64,000 nucleotides of DNA from Heterotrichella gracilis (taxonomy: Eukaryota > Sar > Xanthophyceae > Tribonematales > Xanthonemataceae), in NCBI GenBank assembly GCA_032358255.1, contig JAULBX010023519.1, positions 4,211 through 68,210 on the forward strand. Reading direction: 5' to 3'. The notes below the pieces were generated by a model that saw only the letters and a list, made by a program, of their open reading frames with translations, had not been told where the DNA came from and ran no database searches. Below are positions 1-64,000 of the stretch, one piece after another. Made by a program: the position numbers and the translations under genes. Within the stretch, counting starts at the first letter, position 1. Each line of letters opens with the position of its first letter.

Positions 1-216
1 CAGTGGTTAACTTGAATGATTGGTATGTGATTACTGTGTGATTGGTTTGTGCTGCTCAAGTGGGATAAGGGCGACCCAGCGTGGACAGATGAGTGATCAG
101 TGAATGATCAGTGGTTAACTTGAATGATTGGTATGTGATTACTGTGTGATTGGTTTGTGCTGCTCAAGTGGGATAAGGGCGACCCCGCGTGGACGGGTGA
201 GTGATCACTTCTATTA
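1..216. repeat. Tandem repeat, two copies of a 108-bp unit
   Basis: The first 108 bases recur almost exactly from position 109, each copy beginning CAGTGGTTAACTTGAATG. The second copy differs by a few substitutions and then diverges near 205. There is no coding signal. It lies upstream of the first recognisable MscS exon and is probably intronic. Confidence 0.85.
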
Positions 217-435
217 TTGGTCAGTGATTGATGTGGATGATTAGTGTGTGATAATTCCCTTTGCATGTGAATTAGGACTCCATCTAATTCGGGGGATTAG
301 CAATGTAAACCCGCACGACATCTGACAGGGAAACCCTCAGGATGTTACCCTGCACGTCAAGAACCTGCATAAAAACCCTACAAACACTGCACAGAAACCC
401 TAGGCCCCACGCTAATCCCCCCACTCCCCCTACAG

Positions 436-3267
436 AGGTGATGCTCCACCGCGCGCTGGACCTGGCTGACTGCCTGGAGGACCTGCTGGATGACGTGTCC
501 ATAGTGGGGGTGTCGGTGTTTGCGTGAGTGGGTGGGGGGGGTGGGGGTGGACAGGAGGCCATGTTGCATGCATGTGAGGAGGGGAAGGGGCGTACGGTTT
601 TGAGGGTGGGGTGGGGATGGGGTTGGGGAAATGGTGCTCCAATCGCATTGCATCTCATTGAAAAATGCTGTGCTTGTACCAACCATGCCTTGACCAACTG
701 GGATGCAGCGTGGGTCTCCACATGGCTTGCTTGTGGGGATGCGACTTCCCCGATGTGGGTTACTACCCCTGTTGTGCAGCGCTTTGTCGTCCCGCACGCG
801 GTGCCATCAGTGGGTTTGATGGCCTATGGTCACAGGCTGGCCACTCTGTTGACCGAGCATCCACTCGTGTTACATTAGTCATGTATGCCCCCCTTCCGCT
901 GTGCAGCGTGATGTTCTTCCTGCGCTGGAAGGACCTGATGCTGGACCTGGTCATGCAGCGGGTGGAGAAGGCAGACGGTGAGGGGGAGAAACCTACCCAA
1001 AACCCTATGCAATTGACCCTAAACGATACAAAGACGGGGATGCTGGAGCGGGTGGAAAAGACAGGCGGTGAGGGTGGGAGCCCTGTTGAAAACCTGAGTA
1101 ACCCCAGAGCAAAACCCTGCAACCCCTGCAACGCTGGAAGAACCCTAAACAGGATCTAGTCATGGTGAGGGTCGAGGAGGCAGTTGGTATGGGAAAAACC
1201 CTGAAAAACCCTGTAAAAGCCCCCCCATTTGACATGCACGCAGCCTCCCAAATGCCCCACTCTTTGCTTCCCCATTCACACTAAAATCACAGCATAATAG
1301 TACCTGGTATTGCCACGCCCAGCCCACCCTGGCATATAAATGGTATTATCACCCACCCTGGCATATGGATATAAATATAAATATAAATATAAATATAAAT
1401 AAAACACAGAACCCCCTGTGCAGGCATCAAAGGCAACATGAGCCAAAACACGCGCAGGGCCCTGGTGTCCCTCTCAGGCCTAGCAGGGTGGGTGATAATA
1501 CTATCAGGAGTGATGGCAGGTCTTGGGGCGCTGGGGGTCAACATCGCGCCGCTCCTAACCCTAGGGGGGGTTTCCGGTGTGGCCATAGGGTTTGGGGCCC
1601 AGCAGGTGACGGCCAACATCATTGGGGGGATCTATCTGGTGAGTTTGATGAGGTTGGATCGGGTGTGATGAGTTTTGATCAAGTGTGATCAGGTGACGGC
1701 CAACATCATCGGGGGGTTCTACCTGGTGAGTGCGATGAGGTGGGATCGGAGTGTGATGGGTTGTGATCAGGTGTGATCAGGTGGCGGCCAACATCATCGG
1801 GGGCATCTATCTGGTGAGTGGGATGAGGCGGGGATAAGGGGAGCGATCCGTTTAGCTCCCCCCAGTTTTTGCCATGCGTTCCTGATCCAGCCCTTTGTGG
1901 TTGGTGACCGCCTTTGAGTAGGGTTTAGGGCTTATGCTTATGCTCACACATTTCCCCCTCTGTTTTGCCATGCAGTTCCTGACCCAGCCCTTTGTGGTTG
2001 GCGACCGCGTGAGCCTGCGGTCTGGCAGCAGCGTGGTGGTGCAGGGGGTGGTGGAGAGCATTACCCCGACCAGGGTTGCCATCAGGGCAGACTCCAACAC
2101 ACCCTACCTCATCCCTAACAAGGTGCGCGGGGATGCAGCGGCTGGGGATGCAAACCAAAGTTTTCATTTGTGTTGGCGGACATTGTGCGATGAGGCCATC
2201 TTCTGTGCTTGGTCCCTCCACACATCACACAGCGTCTCCCAATCCTGCAAAGGCAGACAAGATACCATCCAGCAAGGTGTACACATAAGGCATTACTTGA
2301 CACCAGAACTGACATGAACGAGCCCCTTCCTGTGCGCCCCATCCTCACGTCTTCCCCTTGAATCCCGCCTCCCCCACTCTTTCCCCCTTCCCCAGGCCAT
2401 TGTGGACATGATCGTGGAGAACCAGTCCAAGGTGCACAGGGGCAGGGATGGGCTGGGCATTACCAGTCCCCGCCAGCTGTCAGCGGGTTTCAAGCTGCGG
2501 CTGGAGGATTACGAGAAAATGGATGCGGTGCTGGAGAAGCTACGGGTGAGGGGAAACCCTATAGGGTTTTGTATTGAAGTTTTTGCGGTGCTGCACGCTT
2601 ACCATGGTAGTAATTGCGGGGTGGGGTGTGGGGTAAAACTGCTGTAGGGTCAGAATGGTATGGGCAGGAAACCCTACCTGTAGGGTTTTGTGTGGATAAT
2701 TTAGGGTCGAGGTTGAGGTAAATGGCTGGGTGATTAGGGCTGCGCTTTTATCCCGTTCCTCGCAGAATAAGATACAGAATCCTCAAGAGAACCTCGCTCC
2801 CCTTTCCTCCCCTGCAGGCCTTCCTGTCTTCCCACCCTGACCTGAGCCCCAAGCTGCCCGCTACCGCGCGATTCGTCAAGGTGGATGGCAAGGCGCTGGC
2901 GTTTGCTGTCGAGGTGCGCCATCAACCCTGGCAAACCCTAAACATCAACCCTAAGGCCCTGGAAGCCCTGAATCCAAACACCTAAGGCCTCGAGATAGGT
3001 CGTGAAGCATGGTAACCCTAGCCAGCAGGACGTTCTAGCCAATGTCAAAGGGGCCACACGACTCCACACCAATAGGTGCATGCTCTCATCTACCACAGCA
3101 CCCATCCCCACGTCAAGCTTCCACCACCATACCCCCCATTGACCCCCACTCCCACCCCCCAGGCCTACACAACCCCCTCCGCCGCCTCCCGTGCCCAGGA
3201 CATTGAGTCCTCAATCATGCGCAAGGTGGTGGAGCTAAGCGCGGAGGAGGGGGTGGCGTTTGCGTGA
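436..3267 (+). CDS. MscS-like mechanosensitive ion channel, C-terminal part (5' end beyond the window)
   Basis: Eight phase-consistent exons: 436-523, 907-977, 1424-1638, 1976-2122, 2396-2545, 2818-2913, 3163-3267, ending in TGA. The product is a membrane channel that opens on membrane tension; plant and algal MSL homologues sit in plastid or plasma membranes. Exon 1424-1638 encodes the Gly/Ala-rich pore helix (GLGALGVNIAPLLTLGG followed by GVAIGFGAQ), the signature of the MscS family. The next exon gives the beta domain (FVVGDRV, then TPTRVAIR). The C-terminal exons form the cytoplasmic alpha/beta domain. Upstream exons 436-523 and 907-977 are predicted transmembrane or linker helices. The N-terminus and any transit peptide lie outside the window. 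Family assignment is firm; subcellular location is unknown. The introns carry duplicated exon edges. Confidence 0.88.
1040..1078 (+). repeat. Intronic echo of exon 907-977 end plus donor
   Basis: A diverged copy of the last ~30 bases of the preceding exon (CTGGAGCGGGTGGAAAAG against CATGCAGCGGGTGGAGAAG) followed by the same GGTGAGG donor context. Confidence 0.7.
1692..1911 (+). repeat. Cluster of exon-edge echoes inside one MscS intron
   Basis: Within the 1639-1975 intron there are two further copies of the upstream exon end with an intact GTGAGT donor (about 1692-1731 and 1781-1819; each reads GTGRCGGCCAACATCATC then TAYCTG|gtgagt). At 1866-1911 there is a copy of the downstream exon start (CCAGCCCTTTGTGGTTGG) whose AG acceptor has mutated. 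Both kinds of splice edge are thus duplicated in a single intron. Confidence 0.88.
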
Positions 3268-3435
3268 GGGGGTGGAAAATTGGGGAATCTCCAATTCCAA
3301 AATCTTCAGTACTTGCTCCAAGGTGGTAGCAATCCATGGACGGAAGGACTCCACACTTGGATCAATGTGGTCCACTAGCTTCTGCTGGTGTGCCCAAGGC
3401 CAAATTAGTGCCGTGGACATCGACTTGTCCATCAG

Positions 3436-3490
3436 CGCAAGGTGGTGGAGCTGAGTGCAAAGGCGGGGTGGCATGAGGTGTGTGTGTGTG
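3436..3490 (+). repeat. Downstream echo of the last MscS exon
   Basis: CGCAAGGTGGTGGAGCTGAG repeats the sequence just before the MscS stop codon (about 3219-3240), followed by a diverged version of the Glu/Gly codons. It lies about 170 bases after the stop, so the duplication process also reaches 3' flanks. Confidence 0.7.
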
Positions 3491-4305: not shown

Positions 4306-7300
4306 TTAGGTGAGCGAGTAGGGCCCTGTGTCCTCCCCGCTGCCGCTCCCCCCACCCCGCGCATCATACCCCTGCGCAGCCTCACCCACAGCCACCTGCA
4401 CCTTCCTCCCGCGCGCCTTCGCCCCCCCTTCCACCCACTGCCAGGTGCCCTTCCCAGCATCCCGGCGCCTGGAGCTTTTCCCTACCCTGCTGATTTGGGA
4501 ATTGATCCCCCTTGCCCCCCCCTGCACCTCCGCACAGCCTGCCTCCAGCCCCAAGGGGTAGCAAGTGGCGCGTGCACCCACCGCTGAGCTGGCGTCGCCA
4601 AACCACGCTACACCCTGCACATCGGCACCACAATGGCACCTCATTACAATACATTTTTACTATTAAAACATGTCATGAAATCTTCCATGAATTGGCATTT
4701 TCCATTTCAGACATCAACGAAGTTGAAATTTAGGTCACATACCTGCAATAGGTCGCACTGCCTGGCCAGGCCCTCGCACTTGATGGTCAGCGCCTCGCAG
4801 CGGCGGGCCAGGCGGGACCCATCCACACGAGACCGCTCGAGTGCACGCACCGTCGCCCGCTCCGCCCTACTTGCCGTCTCCTCACGCTGCACCGCACCCG
4901 CCAGCTGGGCCTCAACCTGGGGCAGCAGGGGGGCCGGTGAAGGGGTGGGGCTGAAGGCAGGGTTGATGGGTTAGGGTTTAGGATTAGTGGTTTAGATTTT
5001 GCCCCGCCGCATGGACCTCAAGATGGGAACAGCAGTAGAGGGGGCGGTCTTATGGCTCAGAGGGTGATGGACACATACTACTAGGCTTTCCAGCAGCTGG
5101 GCCCTGCCTGGGGCAAATTGCATGTGATTGGTGGTGGTGGGAATTTTGGTTTATAAATTTGATTAGGGTTTGAAAACTCAATTAGGGTTTATGGGGTACT
5201 ACCTCTGCCAGCCTGCCCCTTGCCGCCTCCAGTGTCCCCTTTGCCGGCAGCGCCCCCCTTGCCTGGTGCAGCTCGAAGGTCAGCCGTGCCACCTCAGCAC
5301 GCGCACCCGCACATGACTCCTGGAGCTGGCGCACCAGGCTGTCGCGCGCATCAAGCTGCCTGTGGTGGGTGGGGGGTAGAGGGGGTTGCGGAGACTTTCC
5401 AGGCATTTGCAATTTCATGTGATCATGTCCATGTATGTTAGGCAGCCTCAAGTTGCTAGATTAGAGGTTTTTCAAAATAATTGTTTAAGGGCTCTGTGTG
5501 GGGTTTCTAGGTTGGTGCACACCCCTAATTCCGTTCTCCTTAGCAAGTGTGGCCAACAAAGCATATGTGACAAACTCAGGGACATTGGGCTACGCTGGTT
5601 GGGACATTTAGGACATTTATCAGACAATAGGGTTCCTAAATGTATGGTGTTTGGTAGGGTAGAGGGGGCAAAGGGGGTAGGTAAGCCAAGGTCCACGTGG
5701 GCTGACTTACTCCAGCAGGACCTCAAGTCGCGGATCAATAAGTGGTTCAAACAGTGCCAGGAAAGAGCTGCGTGGCGCCGCATGTGCAAGACCGACTGCT
5801 AATCTGGCTGTATTGCATGTAAGTAAGTAACTTACGATGTCCATGTATGTGATACCATGTGATTCCATGTATTTCCATTTGACCATTTTAATGCGTGTGA
5901 CACGATGTGATCCTGCCTGTATCTCAACCACGCCCCTCGCCTCCCCTGCCACGTGCCATCCAATTGACAATCCCGCACCCCCATTCCACCATTTACACAA
6001 CCCGCAATCCGCAACTCCCTACCCCATCACCCACCTCCGGTGCTCCGCCGCCGCCGCCTCCCCCTCAGCCACCGCCTGCTGGGCCTCCGCCCGCCACCGC
6101 GCGGCAGCCCTATCCCTTGCCTCCACCAGCCCCTCCGCCTCCTGAGCGGCGCGGGCGTGGAACTCCGCAGTGGCCCTCAGCTTGGCGGTGAGTGCCGCTA
6201 GCTCTGCCTGGTGTGCGGTGCGCAGCTCGCGCATGCGGGAGTGGGCGGACTCAAGCTGCAGCAGGTCCTCAGCACCTGCAGCCTGCGAGAAGTGCGCACA
6301 GAAAAACGCAGTCAAATTTGTGAAAGCTGACCTCCACGGGTCAGAGAGACCCTGGTTGGCTAATCAAGCATGGCGGTGAGTGCGGGCCGGGTGAGCCAGG
6401 GGTGCGGTGGGTAGCTCGCGCATGCGGGAGTGCCGCACGTGCGAGAGTGCCAGCGGCCTGCAACAAGGGGTGCGAAGGGCAACCAATCCTGGCTGCAGGT
6501 GCAGTATGCAGGACGAAGGTCAATTGGTTTCAAGAATTGTTTTTAGATCAAATTCCATTGCAATGCATTGCTCGTTCACATGCTGACAGCAACGGGGTTT
6601 GATCTAAAACAACAGAACGCCGAGCACGCCCATGATGACAGTAATAACACACCCTTTCACGCCCCAACAGAGCACCCACGCCCTTCTTTTAACCCCTCCC
6701 CTCTCTTTCACCTGTTCCGCCCCCTGCGCCAGCCTGTTCCTCAGCTCCTGCACCTCCCCATCAACCTGGCGCTGGCGACGCAGCAGCTCGTCGCACGCAG
6801 CACACGCGTCGCGGCACCGCGCCTCGACGGACTGGGCGCTGCGGGTGGCCTGCAAGAAAACGGTGGTCATTCATGTGCGCGCCATGTGGCACCTCCATAG
6901 GACCATGACAGGGGTACTGCACACAGGAGAATTTGCCTGGCCTATTGGATGCATGGAGGAGGGATTGCCTGGCCAGTTGAGGGCGCGCATGTCCCCGCCC
7001 TGTGGTACAAACCATTACAGCTGGGATTGCTGCGCTACCATGCCAAGTATGCCAAGGGCCCAAACGTGTGCACCATGTGGCACAATCTTTGTCCCTGCCT
7101 GCCGAGATTTACAAAAAGGCATGGTGCCCCTCACCTCCGCCTCTGATGCCTCCATGTGCGCCGCCCTGCGCTCCGCCTCCCGCAGCGCCTCCCCAAGCTT
7201 GGCAGCCTGTGCAGCAGCCGCAGCAGCATCCGCACGTGCGCCCTCAGCCGCCACACGCAGCTCGCGCGCCTCCGCCTGCATAATGGACGTTTGGGTCCTA

Positions 7301-9872
7301 GATGGGTAATCAACTCTTCAAATATGTATGCTCATATATCTAAAACAATCAAAGCATTTTCTTATTTATTGCGTAACACCTATTTGAGTATTTCCTTGCG
7401 TTCCTATGTATTATAGTATCCAGTAGAACTATTTCTTCATTTTGTAGCCCTGCCCTCACCCCTCCCGGCACCTACGGCTGGCCGCCCGCTCCCCACACCT
7501 CTCCCTGCCCACCTCTCCCCCCGCCAACGCCTCCTTCACCCCCGCCGCCGACAGCTTTTGCCACCAGGGGCCCCAAAAACACCCCACCGCACCTGCGCCC
7601 CCGCCGCCGCCGCCCGCTCCTCCGCCAGCGCCTCCTTCACCCCCGCCAGCTGCACAGCCAGATCCTCGGCCTGCGCCCGGGCCGCGTGCGCCTTGTCCCT
7701 CCCACGCCCTGCCTTGCCCTGCGCCTCCTCCAGGGCGGCTGCCAAGCCACTTGCCCTGCTGTCCAGGGCAGCAACCTCCTGGGCTAGCCTGCAGCGGCAG
7801 AAAGGAATACATTCCATATACTACCCAGTACATTATTATGGTACCCAGTAGTATAGTATAATACATTCCATATACTACCCAGTACATTATAATGATGTAT
7901 TCCCAGCGGGTCGTGCCAATACATTGCCATGCAGACTTCCAGACAGTGTGCCCAAATGATACAGCAAAACCAGATGTGGGTGAGCACATTCCGTGCCACG
8001 GATGCACACACTGGTATGAGGGATGCCGCCTGTTGGTGAACACCTTGTATTCATACCAGGACAATCTGAGAATGAACCCTAACCCAAAACCCTAACCCTA
8101 AACCCTACACACCCCACCTGGCACTATGATCGGTGCGCTCCCGCAGCTGGTGGGCCAGCCACCTGCCCTACACCCTAAAACCCTACTCATTAACACCAAA
8201 CCCTTAACTTTAGGGCCTAACCCTAAACCCTACACACCCCACCTGATGTTGTCCTCGGTGCGCTCCTGCAGCTGGTGCGCCAGCCACCTGCTCTCGTCCT
8301 CCAGGACCTGATGCTGCTGGCTGAGCAAACGGTTCTCCTGGCTCAGTGTATCCAGCCGCTGCTGCATCTGCACAGAATGGATGACCAAAGTGACGTTTCT
8401 AAAAATTCAAATTACATGTTTATAAATATATGGTTCCCAATTTTCTGGCTCATAGTTTTGGGTTGCTGGTGCATCTGCGATACCACAGAAAGAGTACGAT
8501 TCAATTCCCAATGCCTGGAACTGTGCACACTACAGGTTAGGGTTTTGAGCCTAAACCCTAAAACCCTGTACCGGGGGAGGGGTGCGCCGGTGAGATGAAT
8601 ATAAGGGTACAAACCACACAGAGAGGCTGTGTGCGCACACTGCAATCCTCTCAATATGATATATAAAAGCAGTGTGCAAGTCTGGGCTAGACAGCCGGGA
8701 TGGGTAATGGTAATGGTGGTCGGGTGCGTCTGCAAAATGGCCTCCCCATTCGACCCTCCCGCTGCGGACCTTTTCATGCAGCGCGGCAGCAGCTTGGCTG
8801 GACGCTGCATGGCTGGCCAGCACAGCGTTGGAAGGGGTACAACTCTGCAGCTCCAGCCTGTCCTGCAGCTCCTGGTTCTGCTTCTCCAGCTGGGCTATGT
8901 GGGCCTGAGGGTCTGTGGCGCTGTTTCCCCCCCCTTGGCTCCTGGCCTTGCCCTCCCCTTTCCCCTCGGCAATGTGTGCTAGCTTGTCTGTCAGGTGCGT
9001 CACCATACCCTCGAGGAACTTGACCTGTGTGTGTGGTGGCAGGGTTGTTGTTTGGATTCAATTTTTATTGAGGTGGTCAGTGAGGAGGGTAGGTGCCTCC
9101 TCGAGGTGGGTTTGGAAACACGCGGACGGGGATGGCTTGCTGTCGAGTCTGTGTTGGTCATTTGATGGGAGGTCTTGCCTGTTGGTGGCTGGCGGTGCAG
9201 AGTAGGGTGCTGGTCGGGCATCTGGTGGACTTTGTATGGGTTTGGTAGGGATTTGGTAGGGTTTGGTAGGGTTCTTGGTGTGACAGCCTGTGATTACTGC
9301 AACACAGTGCTGAAAAACCAGCTCGCACCTGGCTGGCTTGGTCGTGTCCATCAGAAACGTCTCCGCCCTGTTCCCCTGAGCTTGGGCCCAAGCCTTGCGA
9401 CTGGCCAGATTCCTGGAACTGCACTGGAGGCTTCTTGAAAGTCCCCACAGGCTTGCTCTGGTCGGCTGGTATGGTGATATAGTTGCCAAACCGCTTAGGT
9501 TTGGCGGCCTGGGCAGGGGCCCCCTCCCTTTGGGCTGGGCTTGGCTGCTGGGTGGAGCTTTGACCGTGGTTGGCAGCTATGGTGAAGGACTGGGTGGGTG
9601 AGTGGAGCCCAGATGTGGTGGCGCTGGCTGACCGGATGTGTTCGACGAAGGAGACGTTTGGTTTAGTGGAGGACCGTATGGTAGGAATACGGTCCCCACC
9701 GCCCTGGATTGGAAAGTGAACAACAGGTGGTTGGTTGACCCTAGTGTTTACGACACTGCTAAGCTGACTACCACCGCAGAGAGAAAGGGAGTTGTGTAGG
9801 ATGGTATGTAAGAGTAATTTAAAGCCTCTCTTATATCCAGATACTGTTGAGGACCAACAGGGCTATGTATAG
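4306..9872 (-). CDS. Long coiled-coil protein, function unknown
   Basis: Phase-consistent exons (5' to 3'): ?-9329, 9024-8770, 8367-8243, 7788-7593, 7275-7135, 6849-6712, 6282-6035, 5359-5203, 4916-4743, 4614-4306. The nine downstream exons give about 580 residues. They are dominated by Ala/Glu/Arg/Gln heptad-like sequence (AQLEKQNQELQDRLELQ, LEDESRWLAHQLQERTEDN, AAARWRAEAQQAVAEGE), typical of centrosomal, ciliary or Golgi coiled-coil scaffolds. The C-terminal exon is Gly/Arg-rich and not coiled. The 5'-most exon (open to about 9872, Ser/Pro/Gln-rich) is joined by phase at 9329/9024, but it overlaps a protein-like frame on the other strand, so the start is uncertain. No enzymatic motif is seen. 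A basal-body or flagellar scaffold is plausible but is only inference. Confidence 0.7.
5446..5835 (+). mobile_element. 3' fragment of a LINE-type non-LTR retrotransposon
   Basis: An open frame from about 5446 to 5802 encodes the C-terminal tail typical of LINE ORF2 proteins: FQNNCLRALCGVSR, then LRWLGHLGHLSDNR, RSTWADLLQQDLK and a terminal AAWRRMCKTDC. This is the region after the reverse transcriptase where 'R..GHL.R....WADLL..D' motifs occur. The copy is 5'-truncated (no RT core), ends with a short GTAA repeat tail near 5818-5833, and lies in an intron of the coiled-coil gene in the opposite orientation. A second fragment of the same family lies at 40077-40210. Confidence 0.82.
8059..8240. 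repeat. Interstitial TTTAGGG/CCCTAAA telomere-like tracts (densest example)
   Basis: AACCCTAACCCAAAACCCTA, AACCCTAAACCC and similar occur several times between the two echo copies in this coiled-coil intron. Comparable one- to three-unit tracts occur in nearly every intron of the window (for example 11215-11250, 15173-15190, 15383-15400, 20515, 22375-22395, 36595-36620, 44228-44245, 51640-51660), usually beside duplicated exon edges. Confidence 0.85.
8120..8175 (-). repeat. Intronic echo of coiled-coil exon 8367-8243 end plus donor
   Basis: On the plus strand GGTGCGCTCCCGCAGCTGG at about 8138 repeats GGTGCGCTCCTGCAGCTGG at about 8257, with the flanking CCACCTG donor complement and GCCAGCCACCTG also conserved. 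CCCTAAA tracts lie between the two copies. Confidence 0.82.
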
Positions 9873-10020: not shown

Positions 10021-11300
10021 TGTATGGTCGTGACAGTCTTCGGAACTTAGTCTAGTCTAGTACCACGCCACCATTGCAGGCAAGCCAAAACGGACGCGAG
10101 AGATACATAACACCTCACAACTGATGCAACAAACCATGACAATAGTCTTGCCTTCTTCTTGAAAAGCACTTGGTGTACAGCCGTGCTATGGATGCTAACT
10201 TTGGCATGTCCGAGTCCTCGGCATGCATTGACATGCACTCCACGAGGGAAAGCTAGCCCGCTCCTTCAACCACTCCACATTAGTCAACAGTTGTTGCAAT
10301 AGGTGAGCAATAAGGTCCCCGGCTTGGGAAGTCCATTCACGCTTATGTCAAGTTGCCTGACCCCAAGTTTGCCAAGTTCTCATCAAGTCATCAATTTGCA
10401 TTTTACCCCTTGACTGGGCTTTGCACTAAAACAAGAGGCTACTAAAGCTGGTGGGCAAACGCCAGACAGTGAGTTTGAGGCATAGCCCCTCCTCTAACCA
10501 AAAGGTCAGTGCTGTAGGTAGGACTGCTGGGACGCTGTCCACTCGTGCCAGCCATGCAGTCTGCCTTGAGGACCTGCCTGCATGGCGAGCCCTGTTGCAG
10601 TGGCAGGGTCACCACGTGGAGTGCTCCGTTGCCACCTGTTAACTTTAACAGAACTGCTAGGAAGAGAACTTGCGTCTGCTCTGCAAGCCAAGAGCAGTCA
10701 GGTACGTGAGTACTCACCAACTTTAGGCCCGTTGCAAATCGTGTGGATATGCATGCATACAAGACACCACAACCCTACTGCGCTCTGAGAAATCAACGGC
10801 TGGATCTCCCCTGTCTGTGCAGAGAACTTGTTCGTCAAGGGTAGCGTAGCGGCTATGACAGCGGCACTGAAGCTATTTGGGGTGGGGTAAGTTCGAGACC
10901 CTACTCTAGGGGGTCAAAGAACCCTAGCCGTTGGGGTCACACCCTAACGGCAGCACAGTAAAAGCAACCGTCGCGTACACCTCATTTGATGCATAAACAA
11001 GGCTCTCCAATATGTGGACCGACACCACTCATCATAGCAAGCTGGTACAAGTGTTCACCTCACGACTCGCGAGCGCACAACAATTGTAGCACAACTTGAG
11101 TGGAACAGACCTTGCCTTTTAATTACTGGCCACCGGTACACCTCCAATGCCAACCTCCTCACGATCCCCCCCATACCCACGTTGCCGCTGGCGTTCTACT
11201 GACCTGGCCCGATCCCAAACCCTAAACCCAACCCAAAACCCTAAACCCAGGTGCAGCAGCAAACCCTATTCACAACCCTGGATGACAAATTTCCCGCGCA
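9873..11300. other. Gene-poor spacer
   Basis: No convincing exons apart from the fragments noted separately. The 5' exons of the DUF2358-like gene should lie somewhere in the last part of this interval but could not be identified. Confidence 0.5.
10835..10910 (+). other. Possible tRNA-derived (SINE-like) pol III promoter head
   Basis: TAGCGTAGCGG near 10842 fits a box A (TRGCNNAGYGG) and GTTCGAGACC at 10891-10900 fits a box B (GTTCGANNCC), about 50 bases apart. The box B sits in a 7-bp stem (GTGGGGT / ACCCTAC). I could not fold a convincing acceptor stem, so this is more likely a decayed tRNA-derived element than a functional tRNA. Confidence 0.25.
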
Positions 11301-11302
11301 GG

Positions 11303-11455
11303 AAGCAGCAATATGAGCAGAAGCTGGAGGCCAGCGCAGCGCTGGTGCAGGATCCAAACTCTTATCAAGCCCTTACACAAAACCCTAAACCCCTCACAGG
11401 AAGCAGCAATACGAGCAGAAGCTGAAGCCCAGTGCAGCGCTGGTGCAGGATTTCC
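11303..11455 (+). repeat. Two acceptor-side echoes upstream of DUF2358 exon 11495
   Basis: Two extra copies of the exon start (GAAGCAGCAATAYGAGCAG, then AAGCTGRAGSCCAGYGCAGC) occur at about 11303-11345 and 11399-11455. Each is preceded by CAG or ACAG and followed by CCCTAAACCC, upstream of the copy used at 11495. Confidence 0.88.
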
Positions 11456-11494
11456 AACCCTTGAACCCTGATGTAGAACCCTAACCCCTCACAG

Positions 11495-13526
11495 GAAGGA
11501 GCAATACGAGCAGAAGCTGGAGGCCAGCGCAGCGCTGGTGCAGGAGCTGGCCCCAGGCGACGTGCAAGGGGTGATGGAGTGCATCAGCGAGGACTACAGG
11601 GACAGGGCTTACATCATAACTGGTGAGCAAAGGCGTGCAGCGGCTGCTGGTTGCACTGGGATGAGCATTGAAAGCTATGCAAAACAACAGCAAAACGCAT
11701 AGAGCATATGTCTTCCTCCCTCCCCTTTGTAGTGTGCACTATGTCTGTACCTCTTAATTAGGGAATGCAACCCCCACCCTCAGGCCACATCTTTGACTCC
11801 CCCCACTCCCCACTCATCACTTGCGGGCCCATTGCTACCGACAGAATTACCAATCAATCAATTCAAAGTTCATTACACTTTGCCAATCAATTTATTTCAA
11901 TTTATTTCCCATTTCACAGGCGACATCTGCGACTCCATCTACGACGCCAACTGGTACTTTGCCGACCCCACCGTCAGCTCCAGCGGCCTGGCCCTGTGGC
12001 GCCCCTCCATTCTACAGTCTAGTGCACTTCCCTTCCCCACACCTCACCACCCTGCAGGCAACATCCGTGAGCCCACCCACCCACCCACCCACCCACCCCC
12101 TTGTGCCTGCAGGCGACATCTGCGACTCCATCTACGACGCCAACTGCTACTTTGCAGACCCCACCGTCAGCTTCAGCGGCTTGGCCCTGTGGCGCCGCAA
12201 CCTGCAGCTGCTGGTGCCGTTCCTTATGGAGCCACGACTGGACCTGATGGAAATGGAAAATGGAGGGGTGAATGACAAGGGGAGGGTGGTGATCAAGGTG
12301 GGTGGGGTGCAAGGGCAAATGCTGGCGCTGATGGGGGGAGGGGATGAATGGTATGGTGTGGGGTGGTCAAGGTGTGGGGTATGGGTGGGTGAGGGTGGGG
12401 ATGCCTTCCCTCATGGAGCTGCGCCTGGACCTGCTGGAAATGGAGAACGGAGGGGTGAACAACAAGGGGAGGGTATTGATCAAGGTGGGTGGGGTGGGAT
12501 GCGTGCGCAAGTGCTGGTGCAAATGCTGAGAGGGGGGTGGCAGGTGACGGATGGGTGGGGGATGGGCGGGTGGAGGTGGGGATGCCTTCCCTCATGGAGC
12601 CGCGGTTGGACCTGCTTGCGCGGGAAATTAGGGGGGGAAATTGGGGTAATGACAGCAAGGTGGTGATAAAGGGGCATCAATGCGGGTGCGTAGGCAAATG
12701 CTGGTGCTGGACGTGGAGGGTGCCGGTGCATGCCGCTGCATGGGCATGTGTGGGCATAGGAGCGGATGTTTGTGTGTGGTATTGGAAGTTTGTGGCATAT
12801 GCATGCAATCCCATAGCCGCCAGCTCTTCATTTAATCTGCCTGTGCTGTAGCCAATGGTTTGCGTCACTATGAACCCCCCCCTACACACAATGCACACAC
12901 TTTTACCCCATCCCACCACCACCCGCAGGCCCAGTGGCGTCTGCGCACCTACCTGCGCTTCCCATGGCTGCCGCTTATCGACATACTGGGCACAACAGAC
13001 TACACGCTCAACGAGACGGCGAACAAGGTGCGGCCAATGCCCTCTTGGGGACAAGAGTTGCCCCAGACCATGGTTATGTTCCATCTGCTTTTTGAACCGA
13101 TGTTGGAAATGGGCAGCTATCTCACTTTTTGCAGACTCGCTATGAGCCTGTGCCCTTGCGTCGTTGCATGCCCCCATGTGACACAAATCTGCATCCACAG
13201 ACCATGCCCATGCAAGGTTCACGCAACGGCAGTGGCCCATGAGCACTTCGCTACATTGCTTCGGAAATTGAGATAGCTGCCCATGGGCTTCATGGCCTGA
13301 CGCGTGCGTGGTCTTTGTGTTGGTGGGCAGGCTGTGTGCCATGTGGAGGCATGAACCGGCACCTGTCAGTCTGGCTCAAAAGCAAAATCTAATTTCAAGT
13401 TAAATGCCACTGCCTGACCATGGTGTGTTTTGTGTGCAGGTTGTGCGCCACGTGGAGGCCTGGAACGTGTCTGGTGTGGAGGCAATCATGCAGATGTTCA
13501 AGCCGTCAGGCAAGCAAGCCACGTGA
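11495..13526 (+). CDS. DUF2358 / NTF2-like (SnoaL-type) protein, N-terminus unresolved
   Basis: Exons 11495-11622, 12113-12297, 12929-13027 and 13440-13526 (TGA) join in phase. The product contains the conserved plant DUF2358 block: YRDRAYIITG, DICDSIYDANCYFADPTVSF, ALWRRNLQLLVPFL, then WRLRTYLRFPWLPLIDILG and VVRHVEAWNVSGVEA. This family has a cone-shaped NTF2-like fold; plant members are mostly plastid proteins of unknown role. The first resolved exon begins mid-domain, so the transit peptide and N-terminus are missing from this model. The central exon has a truncated duplicate at 11930-12020, and its 3' edge is duplicated twice downstream. Family call is good; molecular function is unknown. 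Confidence 0.8.
11930..12020 (+). repeat. Truncated duplicate of DUF2358 exon 12113-12297
   Basis: The CAG acceptor and the first ~75 bases of the exon are repeated almost exactly (GCGACATCTGCGACTCCATC, then GCCGACCCCACCGTCAGC), ending after CTGTGGCGCC. It encodes DICDSIYDANWYFADPTVS in the correct phase but lacks the rest of the exon and a donor. It could be spliced in only as an aberrant product. Confidence 0.88.
12403..12680 (+). repeat. Two donor-side echoes of DUF2358 exon 12113-12297
   Basis: At 12403-12487 the last ~80 exon bases plus GTGGGT donor recur (TCATGGAGCTGCGCCTGGAC, AATGGAGAACGGAGGGGTG, ATTGATCAAG|gtgggt), still open in the exon frame. At 12582-12672 a third, more decayed copy has lost the donor. 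Similarity falls with distance from the exon. Confidence 0.88.
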
Positions 13527-41980: not shown

Positions 41981-41984
41981 TGCG

Positions 41985-51190: not shown

Positions 51191-51203
51191 GCGGGTGCTG
51201 GAT

Positions 51204-53258: not shown

Positions 53259-56200
53259 ATGACTGACCCAAGGGTGCGCTTTGATAAGCGAACACCTCCA
53301 CCCAAGGCTCTTGGTGCCAGCAAGAGCGAGGACGATGAGGAGAAGAAAGAGGAGGAGAAAACGGCGCACCATGGCGGCAGCTGGAAGAACTACATGCAGT
53401 TCAAGAACGAAAAGCTTGGGGAGCAGTTCCGGGAGCATGTCAACAGCCTTGCGACTGTCGCTAGTGCGGTGCCGGAGGACCTCAGATACCTGTTTAAAGG
53501 CGTCTGCATTCATGTCAATGGGCTCACGACCCCCTCCTATTCGGTACGCCTGGGTTCCAATGTCATATGCATGCATATAGGTTATTTAGTATAGCAGTGG
53601 GTTCAGAACGGGCTAGTGACCTGCGTGAGTGTCGGGGGTGTGTTGTGGGTGAAGCTTACATATTGCAATATGTCCTTGGTAAGGTTATCGGCAACAACCA
53701 AGCCAATACTGAGCAATACACCCTCCACCAAGCCGAGATTGTGAAGCCACGCTGCTAAGTCCCCTCGCTGCCTCACATGCTGACATTCCTTTCAATCCCA
53801 TCAAGCTGTCATGCCTTGCCGTCAAGTGGCAAGATCTGAAGCAGACCATGGAGGCGACTTTGCCAAGGAAATAGCCATCTCTAAACCCTAAAGCCAAACC
53901 CTATGGCCCCGGGCTGACATGCCAGTGCATTGCCTTGCCCTCGGTATCAGGAGCTGGAACGAGCCCTGCGCACAGGCAACTTTGCCATTTTCATTCAATA
54001 TAAACCTTAAATCTAGTATTTTTGCTTGCCATTTGAAGACCCTAAACCCTAGACCCATGCTGACAACGCCTTGCCTTGGACCCATGCCAGGAGCTGAAGC
54101 AGATCATGGCCCTGCACGGCGGCGACTTTGCTAACTACTACTCCCGGGACCGGGTCACCCACATCATCTGCAGCAACCTGCCTGACGCCAAGGTGAAGCA
54201 CTTTGACAGGGAGCTCAGCCCAACCCCCGTGGTGTCGCCCGCCTGGATTGTGAAGTGCCTGCAGGAAAGGAGGCTGGTCCCGGTGCGTATTGGGTAGTTG
54301 TAGAAACCGCTGATCACGGTAGATATTTGGGGTAAAAGGAAATGTATGTGCACTCCAGGATTACAGGCGCATGTAACCACACCCGTTTTGTCACCCAACT
54401 AGATCCAGTGTGCCATTCAATCAGTGAGGTATGTGAATTGCAGTTGTACAGCCGGGCGAGCACGCATTTTTTTTATTTTTTATTATAGTGCGCTACCTGC
54501 ATCCCGGCATTATAGCTAATAAAGCATCACAGCGTTTCAGCCACATGTTTGCCAGGATTTGGCTGCTTGCAACTGGAAAAAGCCTGGAGAATCAAAATGT
54601 ATCTAGCCGGCAAGTGTTATAGCCGGCAGCCAATGAGCCAGTGAGCACTTCCCGTGCCGCAGATCGAGGACTTTGTTTTGTGGAAGCTGCGGGACGCCCC
54701 CGGCCAGCGCCGCCTGAAGCAGTTCCACCAGTTCCAGCCCCACCACCTGCCGCCCACCAGCCTCTACCCCTCCCTCCAACCCGGCGCCAATGCTTCCCTT
54801 GGTGCCTCCGGCCCTGCACCTGGCCCTGCCATTGGCCTCGGTGCATCACGCAGGGAACCTCCAAAGAGCGAGCGCCATGAGGCTGGCTTTGGGGCCCATG
54901 CAGTTGGGGATGAATTGCCCAGTGGCATCAACGCCAATGTCAGCCCAGATTTCGCGTTGAATGCCAATTACGCCACCTCCGCTACTGCCCGCTCGAACGC
55001 CAACGCCACCACGCCATCCCCCTGGGTGCGTCAAGTGGATAACGCCACAGACAGAGGTAGCGATGGTGCCACCATTGGCAGCGCAGAAGGTGGGCCGACA
55101 CACAACCCACACCAACAGCAATCCCCACCACACCACCACTACCAGCTGGGGCAAGCACCCCACCACCCCCTCGCTCAGCACCACCACAGCGCCCCCGCGC
55201 TGCCGCCACCCCAGCCGCATCCATCCACATCCCAGGCTCCCCTTGCCATGCACCTAAACACCCGCGGTGGTAATGCTCCCTTCCCGACCACACCAGCCGC
55301 AGCCACACCACCAGGGATGGGCCAGGGGACTGCCACATGGCGGCCTGCGGACCCCTCTCGTGGCGCCATCTCAGCAGGCAACCAGCACCTGCCACCACAC
55401 CAGCAGCATATGCCAGTGACCCACCAGTGCCCACCACTTGGCGCCGCCATGCAGCACCACATGCAGCCCCCAGCTAGTGCTTACACAGCCACCATCCAGC
55501 AACAGCAGCAGCCACCAGGCGGCCGCCCACCTACCCATGACCACCCACCTCTGAGCGCCGCCTCAGTGGCCACTCACCACCCGCCACCTGGAACCACCAC
55601 CACTCACAACCACCCGCCACCTCCCTCCGCACCCCCCACCCACCACCACCCACAACCTCCCTCCGACCCCCTGGCCAACCTCCACCTGCCACCTGGCGCC
55701 ACCCCCGAGGAAGAGATGCGGCTGGCCCAGCGGGTGGCTGCCGCCAAGCGGGGGGCGTGTGATTTGCTGCGGGGACCCCCAAGGTCATCGCACGATGACC
55801 CAAATTTCATGGAGACCTACTTCAAGTCGTCGCGCCTGCACTTCATTGGTGGGTGGCGATGGCGGTGGTGCATGGCGGCACTGTGCTTGCTGGAAGGCTT
55901 GATGGCGGTGGTCATTGTGTGTGTGCCCGCATGGGTCCCGTGGTGGTGCTGCGTGAGCATTACAGTGCATTTTGTGGCTCTGGTAGCGCTGGCAATGATC
56001 AAGATTTCACGGACATGTTCCCCCCGTTGCAGCTAACAGGCCCCATTTGTGCACATGCGCAGCCTTTTCCCACAAAAAGTACCATATTCTCACACCACCT
56101 TCTGCACAGGCACCTGGGAGGGCGCGCTTACTATCAAGCAGCAGCTTCGAAACCAAAGTGACGCTGCTTTGTAAAATGATAATAATATATTGAGAATACA

Positions 56201-59200
56201 GATAAAAAAAAGTATTCTCTACTATGACACGAAATCCATGAACCCTGTGGTATGTAAAATGTAGATCCAAAATTACCATGTGCATAGGTTCCATATTCAC
56301 ACATAAACCCCTGGTTGGAATAAGTGAGTTGATGGTTAAAAATGCACAGGCACCTGGAAGGCGCGCATCGAGACCCTCATGCTCACCCACGGAGGCTCAG
56401 CGCCCCAGCCCAAACCCCACGCGCCGGGTCCAGATGGGCGGCGCAGCGGCGAGCGCACCATCATCCACCTAGACATGGACTGCTTCTTTGCATCGGTGGC
56501 TGCGCTGGCGCACCCAGTGCTTGCAGGTGCGGAATCTGAACCACAAAACCCTGAAATATAAAACCCTAGTGTAGGGTGTGAAACATGTGCTGCTCTTCTG
56601 TTGGGTGCATGTGTGGCTGTCAAGCATCAGATTCTATCCCATGCCCTTCTCTCCACACGTGCTTGTGAATGGTTGAAGTCCTCCTGAGCAAAGATCTTGC
56701 TGAGCGGTGGCTTGCAATTCCCCCCTCCCCACACAATTATATACACACCCTCTTCTTCAGGCAAGCCCCTGGTGGTGAGCCACAGCGCCTCCGACCGGGG
56801 CTCGGGCGAGGTGTCGGCAGCAAACTACGAGGCGCGCACACACGGCATCCGCTCAGGCATGTTCATCGCTGAAGCCCTGCGCCGCTGCCCCACCCTCCTG
56901 GTCATGCCCTACGAGTTTGACAAATATGAGGCGATTTCGGAGACGGTGTTTTGCATCCTGCTGCGCGTGAGCGGCGGGGTGCTGCCTGTGTCGTGCGACG
57001 AGGCGTATGTGGATGTGACGGGGCTGGGGGATGCGGAGGAGATTGCGGCACGCATCCGGCGGGAGGTGGGTGGTTTGGGGGGTGTGGGGGTGTTGGATGC
57101 CAGCATCGCATGAGGCTCTATGAGCATCCACAGCAGCATGTACAACAAACCTTTTTTTTAAAGTATAAATCTAAACATTGCCCCGCCAGCGCCAGATCGA
57201 CATGCAAGGTGATTTTTGTACCTCAAGGAAAATGTCTTCAATTTTAATCCAATTAATGTGTGCAGGTGTTTGAGACCACCCGGTGCCCTGCCAGCGCCGG
57301 CATTGGCCCCAACATGCTGATGGCCAAGCTGGCCACCACCCGCGCCAAGCCCAACGGCCAGTTCTACGTGAGGCAGCACCAGGCAATGGAGTTCCTGGCG
57401 GACATGGCAGCGGCGGACTTGCCAGGCAGGGTGGCTAACACTGTGTAGGGTTTTGAGTTTAGGGTTTGCCAGGCGGGGGCTGGGTGGCAAACACATGTGG
57501 ATGGCATAATGGTAGCTTTGTTGATGTTTGTGTGGTTTGTGGAAGTCACACCATACAGGAACTGCAGGAGCTATCCATCAAACCCCTTTCCCCCAGCAGC
57601 CCTCATTACCATTACCCAGGGTAGCCCTCCTCCACCCGCACCCCACCACCCACCCACCCCCACCCATCCCCGCAGGCATCGGCTGGTCCCTGCGCCAGCG
57701 CCTGGCATCCCTGGGGATCGACAAGGTGCGCGACGTGCGGCAGAAAAACCGGGACGCGCTCCAACGCGAGCTTGGGGACAAGACCGGGTCCATGTTGTGG
57801 GAATATGCGCACGGCAGGGATGCGCGGGTGGTGGAGGCGCCCAAGGGGAGGAAGAGCGTGGGGGCGGAGGTGAATTGGGGGGTGCGGTTCAGGGATGAGG
57901 CGGAGGCGGAGCGCTTTCTGGAGGGGGTGGCGGGGGAGGTGGGTTGGGTGGGTTGAGGGGTGACCGCGTGTATGTGCAGCTTTGCCCATGTGTTGGATTT
58001 GCTGGCAGTCTTGTTGCAGGTGAGTGGGGTGGTATTACATGCAGGTAGATGGAATCTTTGACCCAGCATCCATCATCATGTATGCCATTTGCTTCGCACC
58101 ATACCCCTCAAGCTCAACGGCCATGCTCATGTGCCCAACGTCCAGAGGTCAGCGCATGGCCAACCCCTAGCCTCCACCCCCAACCCCCCTTGCGCAACCT
58201 CCACCCCACCCACCACCCCCGCCCCAGGTTGCCGCCCGCCTCCACTCCGCCGGCGCGCGTGGCCGCACCATCACGCTCAAGCTGAAGCGCCGCAAGGCGG
58301 GCGCCCCCGACCCCCCCAAGTTCCTGGGCTGCGGCCACTGCGACAGCCTGTCCCGCTCAACCACCCTCAGCCACTGCACGGCATCTGCCCAGAAGCTGGC
58401 CCAGGAGGGGTTGGCCATGCTGCGCGCGCTGCGGGTGGCGCCCGACCAGATCCGGGGCGTGGGGCTCAGTGTGCGTGCAAACCCTTCAAACCCTAAAACC
58501 CTCGTGGTTTGTACAATTTCCCCTCTCTATATAAAGGCATAAAATGCCAAAGTTTGTTGGACCCTAACCACAGATCAGGGGCGTGGGGCTCAGCGTGCGT
58601 GCCAACCCCCCTTCATACCCCAAAACCCTTATATTCAGAACCCTTAGTTATACCCTAAAACCTTGTCTGGGGTTGGCGAGCAAGCGGTGCCACGCAGTGC
58701 TGCTGTCTGCGTAGGTCACATGCAAGCGTTCCTTGTAGCTGCGCAAGTGATTGTCAGGGAACACCACATGTCAATAGCATGCATACATGTCACATGTCGA
58801 AATATGCGTGATGCACAGTCGCACTGCTTGGTTGAACAACCGACCAGTATTAGTACATGCACATGTCAGGTGCAATTGTCCTCGCAAATTTAATTGCTGT
58901 GCAATTGTTCTCGCCGATCTAGTTTTTAAGTTGCAATTGTGTGTTCATCCCTCAGGTGACCAAGCTGGATACAGACCAGGGATCAGCCGCCACCCGCCCT
59001 GGATCAGCAGCACCCTCCAGGGTCCCGGCAGGTCCCCCCACCACATATGACCCCCGTGCGCGCACCCCCTGGGGATTCATGCAACCCCCGCAGCAGCAGC
59101 AGCGGTCCCCGGGTGATGATGGTGGGGATGCAATGCAGGCCGGCGTTAATCGGCTGTTTGCGGCGTCTCCAAAGCAGGCGGCAAGGGGGTTGCTGGGAAC

Positions 59201-63532: not shown

Positions 63533-63703
63533 TCATGTGAGGTTGGCCATCCACGCCTTTCTGTGCACCGCCGGTGGCACCGCCTGGTGCAGTGCAGTGC
63601 CCGGCAGCGCGCATGCCAGCGCCCCCACCGCCCGCTGCACCTCCACCAGGCTCTCGGTGAGCTGGCACAGGCCAAACAGGAAGTTGTAGAAGCGCAGCTT
63701 GGC
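63533..63703 (-). CDS. Terminal exon of an unidentified gene extending beyond the right edge
   Basis: After the acceptor CCTGCAG the minus strand reads AKLRFYNFLFGLCQLTESLV, then EVQRAVGALACALPG and a stop (TGA at 63533), 56 residues in all. Composition and helix-like periodicity support coding. Two echoes of the exon start at 63.77 and 63.86 kb support the splice site. The upstream exons are outside the window; I do not recognise the family. Confidence 0.6.
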   Translation of the reverse strand, partial: AKLRFYNFLFGLCQLTESLVEVQRAVGALACALPGTALHQAVPPAVHRKAWMANLT

Positions 63704-63767
63704 CTGCAGGGGGCGGGGTGGGAGGGGGGTGTGTGTAGAAAAAACAAAAATAATGATAAAATACCGT

Positions 63768-63885
63768 TAACATGTTGTAGAAGCGCAGCTTGGCCTGCAG
63801 GGGAGGGGGGGAGTTCAAAACAAAAACAAATTGTAAAATAAAGAAGAAGTAGAGGCGCAGCTTGGTCTGTAAAAGGTGATAAATT
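63768..63885 (-). repeat. Two acceptor-side echoes of the terminal exon at 63703
   Basis: TGTTGTAGAAGCGCAGCTTG then GCCTGCAGGGG (plus strand, ~63773-63803) and AAGTAGAGGCGCAGCTTGGT then CTGT (~63847-63870) repeat AGTTGTAGAAGCGCAGCTTG then GCCTGCAGGGG at 63681-63712. Confidence 0.9.
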
Positions 63886-64000
63886 TACAGCATTATTGCA
63901 ATATACTCCTAATGTGAAGGAGCCATCGCAGAAATGGCCAATAATTATCCTTTTACTGAATTACTACTTTCCATCACAATCCACTGTCACAAATAACACG

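What the first reader, a model, noticed from the sequence alone, without database searches (positions are those of the whole stretch)
1..64000. Window-wide 'exon-edge echoes': introns filled with tandem copies of the neighbouring exon end plus its splice site
In nearly every gene resolved here, one or more introns carry copies of the adjoining 30-140 bp of exon together with the donor or acceptor. I count about 30 such events in some 12 genes on both strands, with one to five copies each and similarity falling with distance. Copies occur at donor edges (1.7, 8.1, 12.4, 15.3, 16.1, 21.0, 23.5, 29.0, 36.1, 38.5, 45.4, 58.6 kb) and acceptor edges (11.3, 17.5, 20.5, 28.6, 37.2, 44.3, 50.4, 56.1, 63.8 kb), and sometimes past stop codons (3.4, 42.1 kb). 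Tandem duplication across an AG|GT site is a known model for intron gain, but such density looks like an active, continuing process that enlarges introns and creates decoy splice sites. I know of no described system with this density.
Basis: seen in the sequence. Interest (0 to 1): 0.88.

Follow-up and report, generated by a model that had tools for sequence, protein, structure and literature searches.

The report
Exon-end copies in algal introns
In this green-lineage alga, pieces of exon ends, splice site included, have repeatedly been copied into the neighbouring intron, lengthening introns and leaving decaying decoy splice sites; the kind of event is known, but its density and its spacer-separated form are unusual.

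Summary
Self-comparison of the window gives 46 near direct matches against 2 near inverted (both palindromes), 7 far direct and 9 far inverted. It is not confined to the window. In 60 introns of 21 conserved genes elsewhere in the genome, with exons set by protein profiles, 14 of 120 exon edges have a copy in the adjoining intron. Controls: 0 of 308 against other introns of the same gene, 1 of 6772 across genes.

The topology is not the AGGT intron-gain model: the copied exon end lies inside the intron it already borders, so an existing intron grows. Nor is it plain tandem duplication: 14 of 14 two-copy pairs at 90% identity or more are shorter than 0.75 of their period, that is repeat, unique spacer, repeat. 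Spacers are enriched in TTTAGGG-like motifs (12.3% against 2.3% in the rest of the same introns, 11 events).

Copies decay almost neutrally. Short introns alone predict many edge events, so exon targeting is suggested, not proven. Ten of 17 random loci have no cluster. Best reading: recurrent error-prone break repair or slippage, a new variant of a known mutation class. Splice use and present activity are untested.

The parts
1603..1832 (+). MscS-like gene, donor edge: exon end VTANIIGGIYL + GTGAGT in three copies (real copy first), period ~87
1867..2008 (+). MscS-like gene, acceptor edge: echo 1867-1911 (AG lost), unaligned spacer 1912-1962, real exon start 1963-2008
3191..3472 (+). copy of the last coding stretch past the stop codon (3408-3472)
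6179..6432 (-). coiled-coil-like gene (by eye), acceptor side: exon 6179-6243, echo 6367-6432 in the upstream intron
8091..8294 (-). same gene, donor edge: real 8216-8294, echo 8091-8169, spacer with CCCTAAA motifs
11293..11545 (+). DUF2358-like gene (family name recalled), acceptor edge: three copies, real copy last (11486-11545)
11917..12196 (+). same gene, acceptor edge: echo 11917-12003 (95%), spacer 106 bp, real 12110-12196
12215..12616 (+). same gene, donor edge: real 12215-12300, echoes near 12402-12490 and 12575-12616
15047..15420 (+). RING-type gene (by eye), donor edge: real 15047-15202, echo 15258-15420 (93%), spacer 55 bp
15865..16131 (+). same gene, donor edge: real 15865-15937, echo 16059-16131 (96%), 121-bp spacer with no other match in the genome search
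17506..17655 (+). same gene, acceptor edge: echo 17506-17553, real 17608-17655
19896..20270 (-). exonuclease-like gene (by eye): three copies of TLEYNTYSLRTNLDLLMDQY + acceptor; which copy is in use is inferred
20457..20718 (.). 77-bp array, 3.2 copies; exon relation not verified
20826..21163 (.). ~94-101-bp array; exon relation not verified
23443..23748 (-). donor edge (by eye): real 23672-23748, echo 23443-23519; spacer carries a palindromic element (23559-23603)
28623..28833 (+). acceptor edge (by eye): echo 28623-28656, real 28799-28833 (86%)
28865..29185 (+). donor edge: exon end + GT in about four copies, period 73-78, TTTAGGG-like spacers
35936..36160 (+). donor edge (by eye): real 35936-35992, echo 36041-36100 and a further partial copy
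37190..37549 (+). TrmA/RumA-like gene (by eye), acceptor edge: three echoes, real copy starting near 37510
38258..38401 (+). same gene, acceptor edge: echo 38258-38304, real 38355-38401
38463..38622 (+). same gene, donor edge: real 38463-38538, echo 38545-38622
41915..42189 (-). 95-bp array at the 3' end of the SnRK2-like kinase gene
42879..43003 (-). kinase gene, acceptor edge (by eye): real 42879-42917, echo 42965-43003 (92%)
44190..44377 (-). kinase gene, acceptor edge (by eye): real near 44190-44232, echoes near 44271 and 44345, TTTAGGG-like spacers
45417..45526 (-). kinase gene, donor edge (by eye): real 45498-45526, echo 45417-45446
53827..54131 (+). REV1-like gene, acceptor edge: two decayed echoes (53827-53851, 53948-53985), real from 54085
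56103..56366 (+). REV1-like gene, acceptor edge: echo 56103-56127, real 56343-56366
58447..58629 (+). REV1-like gene, donor edge: real 58447-58502, echo 58571-58629
63683..63869 (-). acceptor edge (by eye): real 63683-63712, echoes 63774-63803 and near 63845

Best explanation
The echoes are products of a recurrent mutational process, spread through the nuclear genome, that copies a short stretch (about 20-160 bp, R) into the same neighbourhood in the same orientation, net gain mostly 60-210 bp. In genes the copied stretch is mostly an exon end with its splice site. A first event gives R - spacer - R, where the spacer is present once and is often TTTAGGG-like; later slippage or unequal exchange between the two R copies makes R-S-R-S-R arrays. 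The copy next to the exon body stays in use; the other is skipped as intron and decays. Most likely route: error-prone repair of staggered breaks, or slippage at replication or transcription obstacles in the intron (G-rich telomere-like repeats are the suspect), tolerated because a duplicate that keeps the splice site next to the exon does no harm. Shown: local, direct, spaced, edge-spanning, genome-wide, near-neutral decay. Inferred: the break or slippage step, the growth of arrays, the role of the telomere-like motif, fixation by drift.
For: Direct, near and seldom inverted: in the window 46 near direct against 2 palindromes; over all loci and the window 103 near direct pairs at score 60, and 13 near inverted matches of which 10 are palindromes; no inverted pair at score 36 in the 24 conserved-gene loci, palindromes not counted. 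Independent genes with profile-defined exons: 14 of 120 edges (13 of 60 introns, 21 genes) against 0 of 308 and 1 of 6772; the one cross-gene hit is between two class I tRNA synthetases. Two-copy pairs at >=90% identity: 14 of 14 with length/period below 0.75; arrays end in a partial unit, 26 of 29 non-integer. Near-neutral decay: mismatches by codon position 54/48/123, 99 synonymous and 96 nonsynonymous codons, 4 of the latter stops (+ 40). Period divisible by three in 8 of 37. Cluster number correlates with TTTAGGG 7-mer coverage measured outside the duplications (rho 0.75, 17 loci, p 5e-4) and not with coding-like bases (rho 0.01, or 0.21 for the strong ones); introns with echoes 4.4%, without 2.0% (p 0.03), exons 0.26%; spacers 12.3% against 2.3% in the rest of the same introns, 11 events. 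Two spacers searched have no second match in the genome. Precedent: in rice, tandem duplications are the commonest source of insertions, enriched at 50-200 bp and ascribed to repair of adjacent nicks (PMC7971508, passages); fill-in of complementary 3' overhangs by CST-Pol alpha makes small tandem duplications in mouse cells (PMC8355091, passages).
Against: Repair fill-in predicts abutting copies, and high-identity pairs here have spacers. The motif enrichment of spacers rests on few: 5 of 11, with nearly half of the motif bases in one spacer (L043); 20 of 44. Within genes the link fails one test: echo-free introns of genes with echoes are no richer in the motif (1.9%) than those of genes without (2.0%, p 0.87). 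Telomere-like repeats lack the left-G/right-C arrangement that simple end-extension would give (read by eye). Many spacers in the ~190-bp class have no motif. Third-position share 55% is above my rough neutral expectation of about 44%, so weak constraint on some copies is not excluded (related copies are counted as independent). No strain, transcript or outgroup data.
Confidence: 0.6

Rival explanations
1. Ordinary uniform tandem duplication: duplications of ~60-210 bp fall anywhere, those wholly in exons are purged, and because introns are only ~245 bp long most survivors span an edge. No exon-directed process is needed.
For: With unit = period, geometry predicts an edge share of 0.64, 0.77 or 0.87 if intron-internal pairs stay visible as long, half as long or a quarter as long; 14 of 14 at an edge then has P 0.001, 0.02 or 0.13, and counting the one 23-bp internal pair 0.013, 0.11 or 0.39. 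Size range resembles rice (PMC7971508).
Against: With unit = R the predicted share is 0.36, 0.51 or 0.65 and 14 of 14 has P 1e-7, 2e-5 or 0.001; with the internal pair 7e-6, 6e-4 or 0.014. Clusters touch coding-like sequence more than randomly placed footprints: 35 of 52 against 24 (p 0.004), 32 against 19.5, 28 against 15.5 (0 of 2000) by threshold (one search agrees more weakly, p 6e-5 to 0.018). Exon part exceeds intron part in 13 of 14, though my selection of hits weakens this (P 0.06). High-identity pairs are not plain tandem.
Confidence: 0.25
2. Echoes are functional alternative exons or splice decoys kept by selection (mutually exclusive ends, regulated retention).
For: Third codon positions carry 55% of mismatches; many echoes keep GT or AG (by eye); in the youngest pairs the exon part is conserved while the spacer does not align.
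Against: In-frame stops and gaps occur; period divisible by three in 8 of 37; most echoes are partial exons; nonsynonymous changes are nearly as many as synonymous ones (96 to 99).
Confidence: 0.07
3. Insertion of a mobile element (introner-like) with very long target-site duplications.
For: R - insert - R structure; edge-spanning copies would rescue splicing; introners are over-represented in aquatic lineages (PMC9860276, passages).
Against: Two of two spacers searched have no second match in the genome (the other 42 of 44 were not searched); spacers share no sequence beyond the TTTAGGG-like motif by eye; R length is variable (about 20-160 bp).
Confidence: 0.04
4. Intron gain by duplication of AG|GT exonic segments.
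For: At 1.6 kb the unit begins CAG|GTG and ends at a donor, so copies 2 and 3 are flanked by AG and GT.
Against: In modelled introns the copied exon end lies inside the intron that it borders, short of the other splice site.
Confidence: 0.03
5. Assembly artefact or chance self-similarity of low-complexity introns.
For: Some arrays are C-rich (50.4 kb).
Against: Shuffle and cross-intron controls; copies differ by 2-30%, unlike assembly duplication.
Confidence: 0.01

Closest known systems
Small (50-200 bp) tandem duplications in rice ascribed to patch-mediated break repair (PMC7971508; the primary papers it cites were looked up and are not held)
   Same: Direct, local, 50-200 bp, photosynthetic eukaryote, ascribed to repair of adjacent nicks; in rice the tandem share falls beyond 125 bp to 5% by 200 bp, and here no pair was found between 230 and 1500 bp among clustered two-copy pairs apart from one in a low-GC locus of doubtful origin
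   Different: Rice duplications are described as perfect tandem copies; here high-identity pairs have single spacers, clusters favour coding sequence, and 13 of 60 introns are affected
Potato RdRp duplication crossing an intron-exon boundary (PMC4974935)
   Same: Duplicated segment crosses an existing 3' splice site with its polypyrimidine tract
   Different: One event, which made a new intron; here many events across genes that lengthen introns
Intron gain by AGGT tandem duplication (Rogers model, reviewed in PMC3443670)
   Same: Local duplication of exonic sequence with its splice signals
   Different: Here the copies do not bound a new intron
CST-Pol alpha dependent tandem duplications at breaks with 3' overhangs (PMC8355091)
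   Same: Scale (overhangs from 43 bp) and direct orientation; telomere machinery acting inside chromosomes
   Different: No spacer class like this one in the passages read; enzymes not tested here
Interstitial telomeric sequences inserted at double-strand breaks (PMC2246262)
   Same: Telomere-like motif between flanks with duplication; its table lists duplication at 6 of 130 rodent and 4 of 25 primate loci
   Different: Spacers here are mostly degenerate or lack the motif; duplicated stretches are long
Introners (PMC9860276)
   Same: Insertion-driven change of intron content in aquatic eukaryotes
   Different: No dispersed family found in the two spacers searched

Membership tests
Small tandem duplication by break repair | local copies in direct orientation | tested here: met
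   46 near direct, 2 near inverted (palindromes) in the window; 103 direct pairs at score 60 and 3 non-palindromic inverted matches in all loci
Small tandem duplication by break repair | size about 50-200 bp | tested here: met
   periods 62-229 bp in 44 two-copy pairs, one pair of 1049 bp in L015 left out
Small tandem duplication by break repair | copies abut, no spacer | tested here: not met
   14 of 14 pairs at >=90% identity have length/period <0.75
Small tandem duplication by break repair | dependence on end-joining enzymes | not testable with these tools
   needs mutants
Intron gain by tandem (AGGT) duplication | new intron bounded by the two copies | tested here: not met
   in modelled introns the copied exon end lies within the intron that it borders; no outgroup available
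Introners | dispersed near-identical inserts | tested here: inconclusive
   2 of 2 spacers searched have no second match; 42 of 44 were not searched
Interstitial telomeric insertion | telomere-type repeats between the flanks | tested here: inconclusive
   20 of 44 spacers contain a 7-mer; 5 of 11 in modelled introns; mostly degenerate
Exon duplication / mutually exclusive exons | whole exon with both splice sites duplicated, frame kept | tested here: not met
   copies are mostly exon ends; period divisible by three in 8 of 37

The most novel reading that the evidence does not exclude
Exon ends of transcribed genes are preferred targets of a telomere-type end-processing pathway: breaks at exon-intron junctions are healed with telomere-like filler and the junction is copied, in steps of about half or one nucleosome repeat (two-copy periods fall at 62-127 and 167-211 bp, with 2 of 44 between and 1 above; P about 0.01 against a uniform spread), so that intron length grows as a by-product of splicing- or transcription-linked damage.
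Probability: 0.13. Interest if true: 0.85.

Novelty: new variant of a known kind. Interest (0 to 1): 0.58.

Why it matters
How introns become long is usually put down to transposons (general knowledge). Here about one intron in five of the conserved genes examined (13 of 60) shows its own exon end copied inside it, in many states of decay, so intron growth by local duplication can be read event by event. It gives a natural set for testing which repair or slippage route makes 60-210 bp duplications, how splicing copes with near-perfect decoy sites, and whether telomere-like repeats in introns cause breaks. It also warns gene predictors, which can mistake echoes for exons: one kinesin copy scored as a separate profile hit (L047).

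Tried and rejected
Plain tandem duplication as the whole story: rejected for high-identity pairs. Exon-only targeting as proven: not claimed, because geometry explains much of it. Middle copies decayed beyond recognition as the explanation of the ~190-bp class: R against its own spacer scores only slightly above other spacers (10.3 against 8.1; 8.2 against 6.3 in the short class), so not supported as general. Some spacers resemble their flanks weakly (for example 17506, 42879), so partial decay of a once-full unit is possible for some pairs. Telomerase end-extension orientation: no clear pattern in the spacers (by eye). Flanks as the motif control (2.2%) include exon on one side, so I replaced them by the rest of the same introns. 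Exon interiors as a control (60-110 bp from the edge, first 40 introns): 3 of 39 and 1 of 40 also match the adjoining intron at score 34; each lies in an intron whose edge matches too, so I read them as long copies. Selection on echoes: weak third-position excess only. Species name: not reached; photosynthetic (43 chlorophyll a/b-binding matches), plant SnRK2-type kinases as best PDB matches of the window kinase, no rbcL match.

Rows dropped before counts: loci L005, L015, L023 (low GC; L005 and L023 bacteria-like by open-frame coverage, L015 unclear) from the random-locus statistics; L001-L004 from pair statistics; the L015 pair with period 1049 from spacer and period statistics; two low-complexity pairs from the length/period table at >=80% identity (39 to 37) and none at >=90%. 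In one search, 26 of 55 rows lie wholly in stretches without an exon model and stay unclassified, so intron-internal pairs may hide there. In one search one of 19 window events (42.9 kb) was dropped because my peptide was not found. Conserved genes: 24 loci were fetched, 21 gave at least one modelled intron; six adjacent hit pairs gave no model and five were skipped with a message, and pairs too far apart were passed over silently. A few modelled introns have poor splice scores (for example L047, 453 bp) and were kept. In one search four of 14 alignments were spoilt by overlap of my search windows and a fifth (L043 acceptor) paired two echoes; searches cover those events.

Full report
WHAT WAS CHECKED. 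The window is C236:4211-68210 of a 68.5 Mb, 903-contig assembly. It is nuclear DNA of a photosynthetic, probably green-lineage eukaryote: 43 chlorophyll a/b-binding matches, plant SnRK2-type kinases as best PDB matches of the window kinase and TTTAGGG-like repeats. Species unknown. Some contigs look bacterial. Gene names in the window rest on Pfam for four of ten proteins scanned (kinase, MscS, two parts of a Y-family polymerase) or on my reading of the translation (DUF2358, TrmA, RING, exonuclease, REV1), which is recalled knowledge.

THE OBSERVATION. Self-blast of the window gives 46 near direct matches, 2 near inverted ones (both palindromes), 7 far direct and 9 far inverted ones. Chance or low complexity would not favour near over far and direct over inverted to this degree.

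AN INDEPENDENT TEST ELSEWHERE IN THE GENOME. To avoid exons guessed from the echoes themselves, I took exons from protein-profile matches: chaperonin, class I tRNA synthetase and kinesin. Stretches were fetched (24 loci) and 60 introns in 21 of them modelled by frame, profile continuity and splice consensus. The 50-bp exon edge was aligned with the adjoining intron: 14 of 120 edges, in 13 of 60 introns, score 32 or more. Controls: 0 of 308 comparisons with other introns of the same gene; 1 of 6772 with introns of other genes, and that one joins two related synthetases. Exon interiors matched in 3 of 39 and 1 of 40 cases in the first 40 introns, each in an intron whose edge matched too. Introns with an echo average 416 bp, others 249 bp. 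The phenomenon is real, local and not confined to the window.

HOW COMMON. Twenty stretches of 10 kb were taken at fixed places on every tenth contig or so; three low-GC ones were set aside. Of the other 17, ten have no duplication cluster at score 60 and seven have one to seven (26 in all); the window has 26 in 64 kb. The window is thus a dense region, and the variance among loci (5.64) exceeds the mean (1.53).

ANATOMY. (a) Orientation is direct; over all loci and the window, 103 near direct pairs at score 60 stand against 13 near inverted matches, 10 of them palindromes; none but direct pairs reached score 36 in the conserved-gene loci. (b) In modelled introns all 14 edge events have the exon end inside the intron it borders: exon end + donor copied downstream, or acceptor + exon start copied upstream; the copied site is lost in some (L032). 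One short pair (23 bp) lies wholly inside a modelled intron; 26 of 55 rows lie in unmodelled sequence and are unclassified. (c) Two-copy pairs are not abutting duplications: at 90% identity or more 14 of 14 have copy length below 0.75 of the period, median 0.45. L027 is the clearest: 58 bp (54 exon, 4 intron) repeated at 98% with 55 unrelated bases between. (d) Arrays usually end in a partial unit (26 of 29 non-integer), as expected if R-S-R came first and the array grew by exchange between R copies; the partial fraction (median 0.43) is below the two-copy ratio (0.51) and the two distributions differ (KS p 0.005), so this fit is loose. (e) Two-copy periods fall at 62-127 (21) and 167-211 (20), two between and one above; a uniform spread gives such a gap with P about 0.01. 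(f) TTTAGGG 7-mers cover 10.8% of 44 spacers (20 of 44 have one), R 4.6%; in 11 events of modelled introns they cover 12.3% of the spacers and 2.3% of the rest of the same introns, but only 5 of 11 spacers have them and one holds nearly half of the bases. Across 17 random loci the number of clusters correlates with motif coverage outside the duplications (rho 0.75, p 5e-4) and not with coding-like bases (rho 0.01; strong ones 0.21). Against a gene-level effect: echo-free introns of genes with echoes are no richer in the motif than those of other genes (1.9 and 2.0%, p 0.87). (g) Two spacers without the motif have no second match in the genome.

IS IT EXON-DIRECTED? Not proven. Introns are short, about 245 bp before the events, so random duplication units the size of the period would touch an edge in 64-87% of cases, depending on how long intron-internal pairs stay visible; 14 of 14 has P 0.001-0.13, and with the one internal pair 0.013-0.39. 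If the unit is R alone, the expectation is 36-65% and P runs from 1e-7 to 0.001, or 7e-6 to 0.014. Clusters touch coding-like sequence more than random placement (35 against 24 of 52, p 0.004; stricter thresholds stronger). Loci with coding-like sequence but no clusters exist, so gene content alone does not predict the process.

SELECTION. Mismatches between real copy and echo by codon position: window 26/19/63, conserved genes 28/29/60; synonymous 99, nonsynonymous 96, of which 4 stops. A neutral echo beside a conserved exon should give about 44% at third positions by my rough model; 55% is seen. Copies in arrays are not independent, so I read this as near-neutral decay with possible weak constraint. 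Period divisible by three in 8 of 37 (12 expected, p 0.16).

MECHANISM. Shown: local, direct, spaced, splice-site-spanning duplications of mostly 60-210 bp net gain, in many states of decay. Inferred: the step that makes them. Repair of staggered breaks with fill-in explains direct orientation and size; tandem duplications in rice (PMC7971508, passages read) and CST-Pol alpha fill-in at 3' overhangs (PMC8355091, passages) are precedents. The spacer needs filler, as in interstitial telomere insertion (PMC2246262, passages), or a double slippage in which the spacer is original intron. For the ~190-bp class the motif-free spacers, single in the two cases searched, make original intron more likely; for the short class telomere-like filler, or breakage at such repeats, is more likely. 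Both may operate.

PRIOR WORK. The AGGT model and break-repair intron gain are reviewed in PMC3443670 (passages). A single boundary-crossing duplication is described in potato (PMC4974935, passages). Introners (PMC9860276, passages) differ. Ten searches (listings seen) showed no report of dense exon-edge copies in introns; the library lacks most subscription papers, including Gao and Lynch 2009 on internal gene duplication, so absence from print is not claimed.

VERDICT. A real, genome-wide and unusually dense form of a known mutation class, which lengthens introns.

Noticed in passing
whole window; loci L006-L024: TTTAGGG/CCCTAAA 7-mers cover 3.1% of the window against 0.44% after block shuffling, and are about ten times denser in modelled introns than in exons.
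   Followed up: partly
23559-23603, 39267-39317, 52795-52827: Related short palindromic elements; the word GGACTTTAATATATCAC has 37 exact matches in the genome, 0 for the reversed control, two of them in the window. One element lies inside the spacer of the 23.5 kb echo.
   Followed up: partly
L005 (C1), L023 (C180); also C68, C111: C1 and C180 stretches are low-GC with dense long open frames; C68 and C111 hold synthetase genes in open frames of 884-1169 codons: bacterial contaminants or associates in the assembly.
   Followed up: no
1-252 and 39748-39860: Arrays rich in TGATCA/GATCAG-like words: a second kind of simple filler besides the telomere-like one.
   Followed up: no
51034-51192: Array of a ~33-bp unit, 4.7 copies; gene context not worked out.
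   Followed up: no
L047 (C197:15181-15261): A kinesin exon copy is similar enough to the protein profile to score as a separate profile hit, a trap for gene prediction.
   Followed up: partly
eukaryotic loci: CpG is depleted (observed/expected about 0.46-0.70) and TGCA over-represented (about 1.9-3.8 times the uniform expectation) throughout.
   Followed up: no
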